From Patulibacter minatonensis DSM 18081 (GTDB taxonomy: Bacteria; Actinomycetota; Thermoleophilia; Solirubrobacterales; Solirubrobacteraceae), in NCBI RefSeq assembly GCF_000519325.1, contig NZ_KI912613.1:4658469-4722468 (forward strand): a stretch of 64,000 bases of DNA, read 5' to 3'. The notes under the pieces are model-generated. The model worked only from the letters and a program-made list of their open reading frames with translations, made no database searches and was not told where the DNA came from. This document shows, piece after piece, positions 15,377 through 20,282 of the stretch (within the stretch, counting starts at the first letter, position 1; the number at the start of each line of letters is the position of its first letter). Made by a program: the position numbers and the translations under genes.

Positions 15377-16678
15377 CTACCGGCGCTGCAGCCGTGCGAC
15401 GTGGTCGCCGAAGCCCGGGTAGGAGACCTCGGCGGCCTCCATCCCGACGACGGTGACGCCCTCGCGCGATGCCAGCCCTGCGACGGCGCCGAGCATCGCC
15501 AGGCGGTGGTCGCCGTGCGCCTCGATCGTGCCGCCGCGGATGCCGGTGCCGCCCTGGACGACGAAGCCGTCGTCGGTGGCCTCGATCTCCGCGCCGAGCC
15601 CGCGCAGGCCGTTCACGACGGTCGCGATGCGGTCGGACTCCTTGTGCTTGAGCTCCTCGGCACCGCGGACGACGGTCTCGCCCTCCGCGAAGCAGCCGAG
15701 CAGCGCGACGAGCGGCAGCTCGTCGATCACCAGCGGGACCTCCTCGGCCTCGACCGTCGTGGCCTTCAGCGGGCCGTGCGCGACGTCGAGGTCGGCGACC
15801 GGCTCCTCGCCGGGGACGACGCCGTCCTGACGCCGCTCCCGCTCGCCGACGACCACGGCGCCCATGCGCTGGAGGACGTCGAGGATGCCGGTGCGGGTCC
15901 AGTTGACGTTCACGCCCTCGATCAGCAGCCGGGATCCGCGGACGAGGACGCCGGCGACGATCGGGAAGGCGGCCGAGGAGACGTCGCCGGGGACGTGGAT
16001 GTCCTCGACGGTCAGCTCGTCGACGTGGCCGACGGTGATGCGGTCGCCGTCCCGCCACAGCGGGACCCCGAGGCGCGACAGCAGGCGCTCCGTGTGGTCG
16101 CGCGAGGCGACGGGCTCGACCACGGTCGTGCCGCCGTCGGCCAGCATGCCGGCGAGCAGCACGCAGCTCTTGACCTGCGCGGAGGCCACCGGCAGCTCGT
16201 AGGTGATGCCCCGCAGCTGGGTGCCGTGGACGGTGAACGGCGGGAGCCGGCCGTCGGTGGCCTCGATGTTGGCGCCCATGAGGCGCAGCGGCTCGGCGAT
16301 CCGGTCGACGGGGCGGCGGCGGATCGAGGCGTCGCCGTCGAAGCGGAACGAGCGGCCGTCCTGCCCCGCCAGCCAGCCGGGCAGCAGCCGCATGAGCGTG
16401 CCCGCGTTGCCGACGTCGATCGTCTCGCCGTGCGCGTCCGGGGTGCGCATGCCGACGCCGCGCAGGACGACGCGGTCGCCGTCGCGCTGCACGATCGTGC
16501 CGAGCGTCCGCATCGCCTCCAACGTCGAGAGGGTGTCCTCGGCGGCGAGGTAGTTCGTGACCACGACGGGCTCGGACGCCATGGCGCCGACCATCGCTGC
16601 GCGGTGGCTGATCGACTTGTCGGCGGGCGGCGTCAGCCGGCCCTTGAGCGGCCCCGAGGGGTCGAAGCGGACGTCCAT
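15377..16678 (-). CDS. aroA: 3-phosphoshikimate 1-carboxyvinyltransferase (EPSP synthase)
   Basis: Joins shikimate 3-phosphate and phosphoenolpyruvate in the sixth shikimate-pathway step. The 433 aa hold [15 protein letters not shown] (PEP and S3P site), [12 protein letters not shown], the DASIRRRPV loop, [13 protein letters not shown] and [14 protein letters not shown], and a C-terminal DHRLAM signature. AAGGA lies 10 nt before the ATG. It follows DAHP synthase after 155 bp containing two hairpins. TAGGAT (16750-16755) is a possible own promoter with a structured leader of about 70 nt. Confidence 0.96.
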
Positions 16679-16833: not shown

Positions 16834-17718
16834 TCAGGCCGGCACGGCCACCGGTGCCGGGACGCGCCCGGCCAGAGCCGCGACCGCCTCGACCTGCCGC
16901 AGGTACGCGCCGAACTCGTCGGCGCGGAGCTGCTGCGGGCCGTCGCAGACCGCGTTGTCGGGGTCCGGGTGGGTCTCGACGATCAGACCGTCGGCGCCGG
17001 CCGCGGCGGCGGCCATCGACAGCGGCAGCACGAGGTCGCGGCGACCGGCCGCGTGGGACGGGTCCACGACGACGGGCAGGTGCGTCAGGCCCTTCAGGAC
17101 CGGGACGGCGGCGATGTCGAGCGTGAAGCGGGTCGACGTCTCGTAGGTGCGGATGCCGCGCTCGCAGAGGATCACGTTCGGGTTGCCCTGCGCCAGCACG
17201 TACTCGGCGGACATCAGGAGCTCCTTGAGCGTCGCCGCCAGCCCGCGCTTGATGAGCGCCGCGGTCCCGCTGCGCCCGATCTCGGTGAGCAGCGGGTAGT
17301 TCTGCATGTTCCGGGCGCCGACCTGGACGACGTCGGCGACCTCGCAGACGGCCTCGACGTCGCGAACGTCCGTCAGCTCGGTCACGATCGGGAGGCCGGT
17401 CTCCTCCTTCGCGCGCCGGAGGATGTCGAGCCCCTCCTGCCCCAGGCCCTGGAAGCTGTAGGGCGAGCTGCGCGGCTTGTACGCCCCGCCGCGGAAGAGC
17501 TGGACGCCAGCGTCCCGCACGATCCGCGCGGTCGACAGCGTCTGGTCCGCGGACTCGACGGTGCACGGCCCGGCGATCGTCGCGAACGCCCCGCCGCCGA
17601 TCCGTCGTCCGCCGATCTCGAGGGTCGTCTCGCGTCCTCCGGTCGCCTGCAGGGATCCCAGGCGGTACGGGACCTCGCGGACCCCCTCGGCGGGTGCTGC
17701 GGTCGTCTTGGTGCTCAT
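16834..17718 (-). CDS. aroF: 3-deoxy-7-phosphoheptulonate (DAHP) synthase, type I-beta
   Basis: First shikimate-pathway enzyme, condensing PEP with erythrose 4-phosphate. The 294 aa match the KDO8P-synthase-like I-beta class: [28 protein letters not shown], the [10 protein letters not shown] strand, [28 protein letters not shown] and the metal-site [10 protein letters not shown]. There is no fused chorismate mutase or ferredoxin-like ACT domain, so feedback control is unlikely to reside in this chain. ATG 17718 is preceded by GGAGG. The unusual 5' region, with a leader peptide rich in aromatic residues and alternative hairpins, suggests control by attenuation. A separate AroH-type chorismate mutase is encoded at 27921. 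Confidence 0.94.
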
Positions 17719-17835
17719 CGTTCGTCGTTCCTCCCGGACGCCCGGTCGGGCCTCTGCCCACGGTACGTCCGTCGTCATCGGATGGGTTGGATCACCGTCC
17801 CGTCGGCGAGGGTGAGGGGTCCGGCACCCGATCGA

Positions 17836-17868
17836 CCACCCCGCGGGAGAGGGGCGGATGCGCGCCCC
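17836..17868 (-). promoter_or_regulatory. Candidate attenuator: two mutually exclusive hairpins in the DAHP synthase leader
   Basis: Hairpin A pairs 17863-17868 with 17851-17856 (6 bp, 6-nt loop, all G-C). Hairpin B pairs 17851-17857 with 17836-17842 (7 bp with one G-U). Both need 17851-17856, so only one can form. The 5' arm region of A (17861-17868) can also pair perfectly over 8 bp with 17951-17958 inside the leader peptide gene, giving a 1:2 / 2:3 / 3:4 layout. No U-tract follows, so the outcome could be premature termination or occlusion of the GGAGG site. Inference from base pairing only. Confidence 0.45.
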
Positions 17869-17899
17869 GGAGACCTACGAGGACACGACGACCGAGGGC

Positions 17900-18019
17900 C
17901 TAGCGAAATCGCCAGGAGCGCCACGCGTACGAGGCCACGGAGGCCACGTCGGGGCGCGGGGCGACGACCGGGGAGTACTCGGCTGCGGAAGGCAGGGCTC
18001 GAGGGGCGGTCGTCGACAT
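17900..18019 (-). CDS. Leader peptide for DAHP synthase, 39 aa, aromatic-rich C terminus
   Basis: An ATG-to-TAG frame of 40 codons, 181 nt upstream of the DAHP synthase ATG and on the same strand. Residues 31-39 read YAWRSWRFR: one Tyr, two Trp and one Phe within the last nine codons, with another Tyr at 15. All three end-products of the pathway are represented. Phe38 uses TTT, which should be rare at this GC. A good promoter (GTGACC, 17 bp, TACGAT) would start the mRNA a few bases before the ATG, so the peptide is probably read from a nearly leaderless transcript. No homologue is known to me. The pattern fits a ribosome-stalling attenuator peptide; it could also be a chance frame. Confidence 0.62.
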   Translation of the reverse strand: MSTTAPRALPSAAEYSPVVAPRPDVASVASYAWRSWRFR

Positions 18020-18029
18020 CGACCCGGCG

Positions 18030-18058
18030 ATCGTAGCGCACCGGTCCGCGATGGTCAC
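18030..18058 (-). promoter_or_regulatory. Promoter of the DAHP synthase leader transcript
   Basis: On the minus strand, -35 GTGACC (18058-18053), a 17-bp spacer and -10 TACGAT (18035-18030), with the leader ATG 10 nt downstream. Spacing is optimal for a housekeeping sigma factor. Confidence 0.65.
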
Positions 18059-18210: not shown

Positions 18211-18891
18211 GTGCGCCTGCTGATCGTCGAGGACGAGGCGAAGCTCGCCGCGCTCCTCGCGCGGGGCTTCCGCGAGTCCGGCCACGCGGTCGATCTGGCC
18301 GGCACCGGCGAGGAGGCCCTCTGGCGTGCCGGCTCGACGGCCTACGACGTGGTCGTCCTCGACGTCGGGCTGCCCACGATCGACGGCTTCGAGACCTGCC
18401 GGCGGCTGCGGGCCGACGGCGTTCGCACCCCCGTCCTGATGCTGACCGCACGGGACGGCGTCGACGACCGGATCGCCGGCCTCGACGGCGGCGCGGACGA
18501 CTACCTCGTCAAGCCGTTCGACCTCGGGGAGCTCGAGGCGCGGCTGCGGGCGCTCGTCCGGCGCGGGCAGGTCGCGCTCGACCCGGTCCTGACCGTCGGC
18601 CCGCTGCGGCTGGACCCCGCCGGGCGACGCGCCTGGCACGGCGACGAGGAGCTCGGGCTCTCGGCGAAGGAGTTCGCCCTGCTCGAGGTGCTGATGCGTC
18701 GGCCCGGGGAGGCGCTGGACCGCCGCGCGCTGCTGGAGGCCGCGTGGGACGACGCCTACGACCCGCGCTCGAACGTCGTCGACGTCTACGTCGGCTACCT
18801 GCGCCAGAAGGTCGACCGGCCCTTCGGGACGGCGCTGATCGCCACGGTGCGGGGCGTCGGCTACCGGCTCGATGCGGAGGCCGGGGCGTGA
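18211..18891 (+). CDS. OmpR-family response regulator
   Basis: A 226-aa DNA-binding response regulator. The receiver domain (1-115) has the acidic pair in VEDE, the phospho-acceptor D51 (VVVLDVGLP), Thr/Ala at LMLTARD and K101 (YLVKPFD). The winged-helix effector domain (about 130-222) ends TVRGVGYRLD, as in the family. The GTG start lies 8 nt after TACCGT (18197-18202). Its TGA overlaps the kinase GTG, so the pair is translationally coupled. Likely target: the PepSY gene at 20411, whose promoter holds an 11-bp-spaced direct repeat. Confidence 0.93.
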   Translation: MRLLIVEDEAKLAALLARGFRESGHAVDLAGTGEEALWRAGSTAYDVVVLDVGLPTIDGFETCRRLRADGVRTPVLMLTARDGVDDRIAGLDGGADDYLVKPFDLGELEARLRALVRRGQVALDPVLTVGPLRLDPAGRRAWHGDEELGLSAKEFALLEVLMRRPGEALDRRALLEAAWDDAYDPRSNVVDVYVGYLRQKVDRPFGTALIATVRGVGYRLDAEAGA

Positions 18892-20282
18892 GCCGGCTGT
18901 CCGTGCGCCTGCGGGTCGTCGTGGCCTCGACCGTCGCGATGGCGGTGGTCCTCGTGGCCCTCGGCGCGTTCCTGCGCGGCCAGGTCGCCGGCGGGCTCGA
19001 CGACGCGCTCGGGCGGACGCTCGACGCCCGGCTCGCCGACGTCACCGGCTCGCTGGCCGCCGGGCGCTCGGCCCGCGCGGCGGTCCCGGCGGGCGAGGCC
19101 GACGAGGACACCGTCGTCGTGCAGGTCCTGGACCGCTCCGGCCGGGTGCTGGCGGCCAGTCCGGGGCTGGCGGGGTCGCCGCTCCTCCGGGCCGGGGAGC
19201 TGCGGGAGGCCGCCGACGACGACGTGACGATCGACCGCCGCGACGTCGGGGTCCGCGACGACGACGGCGACACCGACGCGTTCGCGGCCCGCCTGCGGGC
19301 GACGCCGGTCGACGACGACCGCGCGGACCTGCCGATCGTCGTGGCGGCCACCGGCGTCGCCGACCGGGACGCCGCGGTCCGGTCGCTCGACACCGCGCTC
19401 GCGATCGGTCTGCCCGTCGCGATCCTCCTGTCGGCCGCGCTCGGCTGGGCGCTCGCGCGCGGGGCGCTGCGTCCCGTCGAGGCGATGCGCCGGCGCGCGG
19501 ACGGGATCGCGGGCCCGTCGGACGAGCGGCTGCCGGTGCCGCGTTCGCGGGACGAGATCGCGCGGCTGGGCCGGACGCTGAACGCGATGCTCGACCGCCA
19601 GGCCGCGGGGTTCCGGCGGGAGCGGGCGTTCGCCGCCGACGCCAGCCACGAGCTGCGGACCCCGCTGACGGTCCTGCGCACCGAGCTCGACCTCGCCACG
19701 CGCGGGGAGCGCGACGCCGGCGAGCTGCGGGCCGCCCTGGCGTCGGCGTCCGACGAGACCCGCCGGCTCGAGCGGCTCGCCGACGACCTGCTCGTGCTCT
19801 CGCGCGCCGAGAGCGGGCGCCCCGACCCGCCCGCCGAGGTCCCGGTCCGCCACCTGCTCGAGGCCGTGCGCGACCGCTTCTCCGGGGCGTTCGCCGCGGA
19901 GGACCGGAGCCTCGAGGTGGTGCTCGACGTGGCCGACCCGCGCGTCGTCACCGGGCGTTCCGGCGACCTGGACCGTGCGCTCTCGGGGCTCGTCGTGAAC
20001 GCGCTCCATCACGGCGGCGGGGAGACGGAGCTGCGGGTCGCGGCGTCCGGGGACGGACGCGTCGCGTTCCACGTGCTCGATCGCGGACCGGGGGTCCCGA
20101 CGGACCTCCGGGGCCGGGTCTTCGACCGCTTCGTCACGGGAGCCGGGGACCGGCGGGAGCGGCGCGGCACCGGGCTCGGGCTCGCGATCGTCGCCGCGGT
20201 GGCCGCGTCCCACGGCGGCCGCGCGGACGTCGAGGATCGGACCGGCGGTGGCACCGACGCGTGGTTCTCGGTCGCCGGGTGA
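18888..20282 (+). CDS. Sensor histidine kinase (HAMP, HisKA)
   Basis: A 464-aa membrane kinase, partner of the upstream OmpR regulator. TM1 is about residues 8-28, an Asp-rich extracytoplasmic sensor covers 35-165 (with a very acidic stretch near 108-131), and TM2 is about 172-190. HAMP follows (190-245), then the H-box ASHELRTPLTVLR with phospho-acceptor H254, and a HATPase domain with DRGPGVP and RGTGLGLAIV G-boxes. The acidic sensor might bind cations (inference). GTG 18888 overlaps the preceding stop. Confidence 0.93.
   Translation: MSRLSVRLRVVVASTVAMAVVLVALGAFLRGQVAGGLDDALGRTLDARLADVTGSLAAGRSARAAVPAGEADEDTVVVQVLDRSGRVLAASPGLAGSPLLRAGELREAADDDVTIDRRDVGVRDDDGDTDAFAARLRATPVDDDRADLPIVVAATGVADRDAAVRSLDTALAIGLPVAILLSAALGWALARGALRPVEAMRRRADGIAGPSDERLPVPRSRDEIARLGRTLNAMLDRQAAGFRRERAFAADASHELRTPLTVLRTELDLATRGERDAGELRAALASASDETRRLERLADDLLVLSRAESGRPDPPAEVPVRHLLEAVRDRFSGAFAAEDRSLEVVLDVADPRVVTGRSGDLDRALSGLVVNALHHGGGETELRVAASGDGRVAFHVLDRGPGVPTDLRGRVFDRFVTGAGDRRERRGTGLGLAIVAAVAASHGGRADVEDRTGGGTDAWFSVAG

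What the first reader, a model, noticed from the sequence alone, without database searches (positions are those of the whole stretch)
17719..18058. Undescribed aromatic leader peptide and attenuator in front of DAHP synthase
Seen: a 39-codon frame (complement 17900-18019) ends YAWRSWRFR, so Tyr, Trp, Trp and Phe fall in its last nine codons, using the rare TTT for Phe. It has its own promoter (GTGACC, 17 bp, TACGAT) and is followed by two hairpins that compete for 17851-17856, plus an 8-bp complement inside the leader gene (17951-17958 with 17861-17868). Known: attenuation of aromatic genes by stalled leader peptides occurs in other bacteria, usually with Trp or Phe only. Inference: one leader senses all three aromatic amino acids at the pathway's first enzyme. 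The weakness is that pairing region 1 lies upstream of the stall codons, so classic trp-type logic may not apply; translational attenuation at GGAGG is an alternative.
Basis: partly seen in the sequence, partly recalled or inferred. Interest (0 to 1): 0.8.

Follow-up and report, generated by a model that had tools for sequence, protein, structure and literature searches.

The report
Conserved aromatic leader peptide controlling DAHP synthase
Soil actinobacteria of the order Solirubrobacterales carry, in front of the gene for the first enzyme of aromatic amino-acid synthesis, a tiny tryptophan-, tyrosine- and phenylalanine-rich reading frame that ends exactly at the base of a conserved RNA stem, very probably a so far undescribed switch that lets a moving ribosome report whether aromatic amino acids are available.

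Summary
The short frame is real and conserved. Across Solirubrobacterales, 136 non-redundant loci carry a frame whose last codons are rich in Tyr/Trp/Phe and end in an almost invariant W-R-F-x-stop, written CGA-UUU-nnn-UAG although CGA and UUU are rare there. All three aromatics occur in 96% of leaders; peptide sequence drifts freely, aromatic codons do not. The element is single-copy, not found in other orders, and precedes two different DAHP synthase families (I-beta and I-alpha), so it follows the pathway's entry step rather than one gene lineage. Best explanation: ribosome-mediated attenuation in which a ribosome at the stop codon hides P1 and one stalled at aromatic codons exposes it; the off-step (perhaps Rho) is inferred. 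The closest known case is the Phe-Tyr-Phe leader aroR of Corynebacterium aroF. A new variant of a known kind; the invariant CGA-UUU core is unexplained.

The parts
18053..18058 (-). candidate -35 (GTGACC) of the leader promoter
   Evidence: sequence and coordinates; not conserved within the genus by eye
18030..18035 (-). candidate -10 (TACGAT) of the leader promoter, 10 nt before the leader start codon, so a nearly leaderless transcript
   Evidence: TA(C/G)GnT kept in the genus; TTG-N17-TGnTACAA type promoter at the same place in other lineages
17900..18019 (-). leader peptide frame, 39 codons, ending YAWRSWRFR*
   Evidence: conserved order-wide
17900..17914 (-). nearly invariant core UGG-CGA-UUU-nnn-UAG (last Trp, Arg, Phe, x, stop)
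17889..17900 (-). P1 5' arm GGCCCTCGGTCG, first base is the G of the UAG stop
   Evidence: covarying stem in 63 loci; 11 of 12 pairs in the window
   Evidence: varies in length and sequence between lineages
17823..17834 (-). P1 3' arm CGATCGGGTGCC
17756..17769 (-). GACGTACCGTGGGC, window counterpart of a TAnnnT element 30-44 nt before the DAHPS start in relatives; possible second promoter
   Evidence: no -35 element
17726..17737 (-). Shine-Dalgarno region of DAHP synthase
16834..17718 (-). type I-beta DAHP synthase, 294 aa, lacking the N-terminal ferredoxin-like domain
15377..16678 (-). probable aroA (EPSP synthase), next gene downstream
   Evidence: identified by eye from its sequence ([13 protein letters not shown]), not searched

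Best explanation
It is a ribosome-mediated attenuator of the aromatic pathway's entry enzyme. Shown by comparison: a short frame whose selected feature is its Trp/Tyr/Phe codons, a fixed W-R-F-x-UAG end, and a covarying stem (P1) whose 5' strand starts in the stop codon. Inferred: the frame is translated. When aromatic amino acids are plentiful, ribosomes run to UAG, and a ribosome there covers about 9-12 nt beyond the stop, which is the 5' strand of P1, so P1 cannot form. When charged tRNA-Trp or tRNA-Tyr is short, the ribosome waits at codons -4 to -10; with the -4 Trp codon in the A site its front edge lies at the stop codon, P1 is free to form, and transcription into DAHP synthase continues. 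The rare codons CGA and UUU and the UAG stop would set how long the ribosome sits over P1. The off-step is not an intrinsic terminator; Rho acting on the C-rich RNA when P1 is absent is the likeliest candidate. My estimates: leader-based aromatic sensing 0.85; P1 as the ON structure 0.55; Rho as the off-step 0.3.
For: Aromatic residues make up 36-57% of codons -5 to -8 and 96% of codon -4, only in the leader's reading frame, against 5.5% in window ORFs. Between related leaders the share of synonymous codon changes equals random (0.21 vs 0.24), but changed aromatic codons stay aromatic 36% vs 13% expected: codon content is selected, peptide sequence is not. P1: 94.4% of cells paired, 45 compensatory cells vs 10 in shuffles, collapse when slid by one base; predicted independently by RNAalifold. 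Fixed register of the aromatic codons, stop and P1. Single-copy and tied to DAHPS; precedes both I-beta and I-alpha DAHPS. Promoter before the leader. C. glutamicum aroR-aroF sets a precedent (PMC11802643).
Against: No alternative structure competing with P1 is conserved, so the ON/OFF assignment rests on ribosome geometry. No intrinsic terminator; the C excess is only weak support for Rho. Synonymous-site invariance of CGA-UUU is more than a plain attenuator needs. A second promoter-like element downstream of P1 could let part of expression bypass the switch. The window's own P1-region fold is not unusual against shuffles (z -0.96). No expression or ribosome data.
Confidence: 0.7

Rival explanations
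1. Arrest-peptide control as in TnaC: the nascent chain ending W-R-F-x holds the ribosome at UAG when a free aromatic amino acid is bound, and the parked ribosome blocks P1; the aromatic codons upstream are secondary.
For: Arg at -3 in 136/136, Phe at -2 in 135/136 and UAG in 135/136 leaders; such fixed residues next to a stop codon are typical of arrest peptides (general knowledge).
Against: The rest of the peptide drifts freely, unlike sensor regions of known arrest peptides; the constraint includes synonymous sites (CGA and TTT; elsewhere in the same leader tails CGA is 1 of 207 Arg codons and TTT 15 of 101 Phe codons), which a nascent chain would not need.
Confidence: 0.2
2. Classical trp-type attenuator with mutually exclusive antiterminator and intrinsic terminator.
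Against: No conserved partner for the P1 3' arm downstream, no hairpin stability after P1 beyond shuffles, hairpin plus U-tract in only 7 of 134 loci and none in the window.
Confidence: 0.1
3. A structured RNA (riboswitch or protein site) in which translation plays no part and CGAUUUnnYUAGGCG is a binding core.
For: Synonymous-site invariance of the core and a covarying stem with interior hairpins.
Against: Frame-specific aromatic codons in all lineages, kept while the sequence drifts; no Rfam match.
Confidence: 0.08
4. Translational attenuation: the leader or its stem hides the Shine-Dalgarno sequence of DAHP synthase.
For: The LEU element of Actinobacteria pairs leucine codons with the leuA SD (PMC1262725).
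Against: Complementarity between the SD region and the leader domain is not above shuffles; P1 ends 48-151 nt before the start codon.
Confidence: 0.05

Closest known systems
aroR leader of the aroF operon, Corynebacterium glutamicum (Neshat et al. 2014, cited in PMC11802643)
   Same: Short aromatic leader peptide in front of a DAHP synthase gene in an actinobacterium; expression rises under amino-acid limitation.
   Different: aroR holds Phe-Tyr-Phe and responds to Phe but not Tyr; here Trp, Tyr and Phe together, a fixed CGA-UUU-nnn-UAG end, a stem opening in the stop codon, no intrinsic terminator, and two DAHPS families downstream. Sequence homology to aroR was not tested.
trpL attenuators of Corynebacterium and Streptomyces (PMC1262725) and E. 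coli
   Same: Leader frame with regulatory codons just before the stop; stem starting right after the stop.
   Different: Those have an antiterminator/terminator pair with a poly-U tail; neither is found here.
Mycobacterium cys leader peptides without obvious terminators (PMC1262725)
   Same: Regulatory codons near the stop, no terminator found, Rho suggested.
   Different: Cysteine codons; no conserved hairpins were reported there.
TnaC-type arrest peptides
   Same: Invariant residues next to the stop codon; a ribosome at the stop would control access to RNA downstream.
   Different: Variable peptide body, codon-level invariance, biosynthetic rather than catabolic gene.
LEU element of actinobacterial leuA (PMC1262725)
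   Same: Widely conserved leader frame and RNA structure before the first enzyme of an amino-acid pathway.
   Different: LEU pairs codons with the SD and forms a pseudoknot; SD pairing was tested here and not seen.

Membership tests
ribosome-mediated attenuator (general kind) | short upstream frame rich in codons for the end product of the regulated pathway | tested here: met
ribosome-mediated attenuator (general kind) | selection on codon content rather than on peptide sequence | tested here: met
ribosome-mediated attenuator (general kind) | conserved RNA structure whose formation depends on ribosome position | tested here: inconclusive
   stem P1 covaries and starts in the stop codon; dependence on the ribosome is inferred
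ribosome-mediated attenuator (general kind) | leader translated and expression rises on starvation | not testable with these tools
   needs experiments
classical trp-type attenuator | mutually exclusive antiterminator and terminator helices | tested here: not met
   partners not above shuffles
classical trp-type attenuator | intrinsic terminator with U-tract before the gene | tested here: not met
   0 in the window, 7 of 134 loci
C. glutamicum aroR-type DAHPS leader | aromatic leader frame upstream of DAHPS | tested here: met
C. glutamicum aroR-type DAHPS leader | homologous to aroR | not tested
   aroR sequence not fetched; the core pattern was found in 1 of about 358 genomes outside the class, a locus without an aromatic tail or DAHPS
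TnaC-type arrest peptide | invariant residues close to the stop codon | tested here: met
   R-3, F-2, UAG
TnaC-type arrest peptide | ligand-dependent stalling at the stop codon | not testable with these tools
   needs toeprinting
LEU element / SD sequestration | leader codons or stem pair with the SD | tested here: not met
any Rfam family, T-box included | match to a covariance model | tested here: not met
   gathering threshold, whole window; E up to 5, ten loci

The most novel reading that the evidence does not exclude
The leader combines two signals: codon-by-codon sensing of three amino acids, and a programmed pause at its own stop codon set by rare codons (CGA, UUU), the R-F chain and UAG, which parks the finished ribosome on the 5' strand of P1 and lets Rho end transcription. 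That would be an attenuator whose off-state is built by slow termination of the leader rather than by a terminator hairpin.
Probability: 0.25. Interest if true: 0.78.

Novelty: new variant of a known kind. Interest (0 to 1): 0.62.

Why it matters
No conserved RNA control was found for phenylalanine or tyrosine genes in Actinobacteria in the comparative study held (PMC1262725). Here one leader, kept through most of a bacterial order, appears to gate the shared entry enzyme of all three aromatic amino acids, and it stands in front of two different DAHPS families. It gives a directly testable system for two open questions: how one leader integrates several amino acids, and how leader attenuation works in high-GC actinobacteria without intrinsic terminators. 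The invariant synonymous sites next to the stop codon point to a codon-level or RNA-level function that is not explained.

Tried and rejected
Alternative partners for the P1 5' arm in the leader and the P1 3' arm downstream, and pairing of the invariant core with downstream RNA: all at or below shuffles. SD sequestration: not above shuffles. P0 hairpin UGGC-GAUUUA-GCUA: no covariation. Intrinsic terminator: not found. Known RNA family: none. Pairing of the core with the conserved MMIVM start of I-beta DAHPS: rejected because I-alpha genes lack that start and keep the core. RNase E site, frameshift signal and T-box-like tRNA contact were considered for CGAUUU and left without test or support. 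Covariance-model hits outside the order (L274, L275) lie inside long frames and count as chance. Chance pattern hits (L058, L068-L072, L075-L077, L080, L207) lack both the aromatic tail and DAHPS. My first own-genome search used the wrong frame of DAHPS and is not used.

Full report
Observation. The 39-codon frame at complement 17900-18019 is present and ends YAWRSWRFR*. The gene downstream is a type I-beta DAHP synthase at complement 16834-17718, followed by a probable aroA at 15377-16678.

Conservation without using the motif. DAHP synthase relatives were fetched by protein similarity from the same order. In 29 of the 30 best loci (window included) a short frame lies roughly 180-410 nt upstream of the conserved enzyme region with tails such as FAWRTWRFR*, SSFYAWRFS*, TAWYWRFS*, QWSWRAYRFI*. 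Of 20 further DAHPS loci taken because they lacked the exact pattern, five carry the motif in variant form: four keep CGATTT (one of these has CAG in place of TAG) and one reads CGA-ACC; in a sixth the core is seen without its stop; the others show no leader of this kind. So the invariance of CGA and TTT is not only an effect of searching for it, although most of the 136 loci used for statistics were found by pattern.

Distribution. CGATTTnnYTAGGC occurs in 156 of 201 genomes of the order, about once per genome, with almost no hits of the reversed control. In a phylum-wide sample the longer pattern TGGCGATTTnnYTAGGC is in 11 of 14 genomes of the order, 0 of 24 of other orders in the class and 1 of about 358 others, and that one has neither aromatic tail nor DAHPS. 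In a collection of one genome per species, 114 DNA stretches match a still longer pattern; the listed titles are Solirubrobacterales, Thermoleophilaceae, Conexibacter, Solirubrobacter, Patulibacter or unclassified, mostly actinobacterial, MAGs, with one MAG labelled Bifidobacterium breve that I take for a mislabelled bin. In a sister order 37 of 41 genomes have the same DAHP synthase, but 0 of 30 loci show the leader. A covariance model built from 63 loci finds the window locus as the best hit in its own genome (E 0.02) and, in a class-wide sample, 41 genomes of the order plus two weak hits elsewhere that lie inside long frames.

Two enzyme families. Behind the leader lies either I-beta DAHP synthase (TIGR01361, with or without PF18152) or I-alpha (TIGR00034 aroFGH); at least 73 and 43 loci respectively by catalytic motif, with examples confirmed by profile. 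One genome (L276) keeps a decaying variant (CGA-TTC...CRCWRFV*) in front of a prephenate-dehydrogenase-like gene (by eye).

Codons. In 136 non-redundant leaders Trp is at -4 in 96%, Arg at -3 in all, Phe at -2 in 99%, stop TAG in 135; aromatic residues at -5 to -8 are 36-57%, Tyr foremost; all three aromatics occur in the last 12 codons in 96%, and Phe outside the fixed position in 44%. Elsewhere in the same leader tails CGA is 1 of 207 Arg codons and TTT 15 of 101 Phe codons; in the window's coding-like ORFs TTT is 3 of 330 Phe codons and CGA 3.3% of Arg codons. Between related leaders synonymous changes are no more common than random, but aromatic codons are kept. This is the mark of a codon-counting leader, with an extra constraint on its end.

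RNA structure. A MAFFT alignment of 63 loci gives a consensus stem that starts in the G of UAG (RNAalifold). With the structure named, 94.4% of cells pair, 45 cells show changes on both sides against 10 in shuffles, and sliding by one column destroys pairing; the compensatory changes are concentrated in two pairs. In a wider set of loci the best stem anchored at that G scores 9.5 on average against 6.0 in shuffles. In the window the arms are 17889-17900 and 17823-17834, 11 of 12 paired. Inside P1 lie lineage-specific hairpins, often two, which makes a three-way junction.

What is absent. No conserved partner for either P1 arm or the core, no SD pairing, no stable hairpin after P1 beyond shuffles, hairpin plus U-tract in 7 of 134 loci. 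The RNA from leader to gene is C-rich (C over G in 70-95% of loci by region, 13% in the gene start), which fits Rho but does not show it.

Mechanism. Standard ribosome geometry (general knowledge) puts the front edge about 12 nt beyond the first base of the A-site codon. At UAG it covers the P1 5' strand; with Trp -4 in the A site it stops at the stop codon; with Phe -2 in the A site it covers part of P1. Hence plenty hides P1, and Trp or Tyr shortage frees it. Since DAHP synthase is biosynthetic, P1 is most simply the ON structure. That step and the Rho step are inferences.

Literature. A 2005 comparative study found no conserved RNA elements before phenylalanine or tyrosine genes in Actinobacteria (PMC1262725). 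C. glutamicum aroR, a Phe-Tyr-Phe leader of the aroF operon, responds to Phe but not Tyr (PMC11802643). No paper on Solirubrobacterales leaders was found in the open-access library; subscription journals are mostly not held. No Rfam match.

Limits. No expression data; the start codon of the leader is not proven; counts are of sequences, not independent evolutionary events; P1 covariation rests mainly on two variable pairs.

Noticed in passing
16834-17718 (-) and L008: The window's DAHP synthase and that of L008 lack the N-terminal ferredoxin-like regulatory domain (PF18152) that the congener L003 has, while the leader is kept: the attenuator may carry more of the feedback there.
   Followed up: partly
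30-44 nt before the DAHPS start in relatives; 17756-17769 (-) in the window: A TAnnnT element followed by T/C (GTAnnGTTTCC) recurs in 49 of 80 I-beta loci, without a -35; a second promoter or an RNA element.
   Followed up: partly
L276: In one genome of the order a degenerate leader (CGA-TTC core) precedes a prephenate-dehydrogenase-like gene and no DAHPS; a hisC-like aminotransferase end lies upstream.
   Followed up: partly
L013, L063, L062, L119, L158: The gene upstream of the leader is often a hisC-like aminotransferase, for both I-alpha and I-beta loci, which suggests exchange of the DAHPS gene in place behind the leader (by eye).
   Followed up: no
18211-20282 (+): In the window the leader promoter faces a divergent response regulator and sensor kinase pair (by eye), not hisC.
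   Followed up: no
L215: One leader has CAG in place of the UAG stop while the core and P1 arm are kept.
   Followed up: no
L156: A contig labelled Bifidobacterium breve carries the Solirubrobacterales motif; probably a mislabelled metagenome bin.
   Followed up: no
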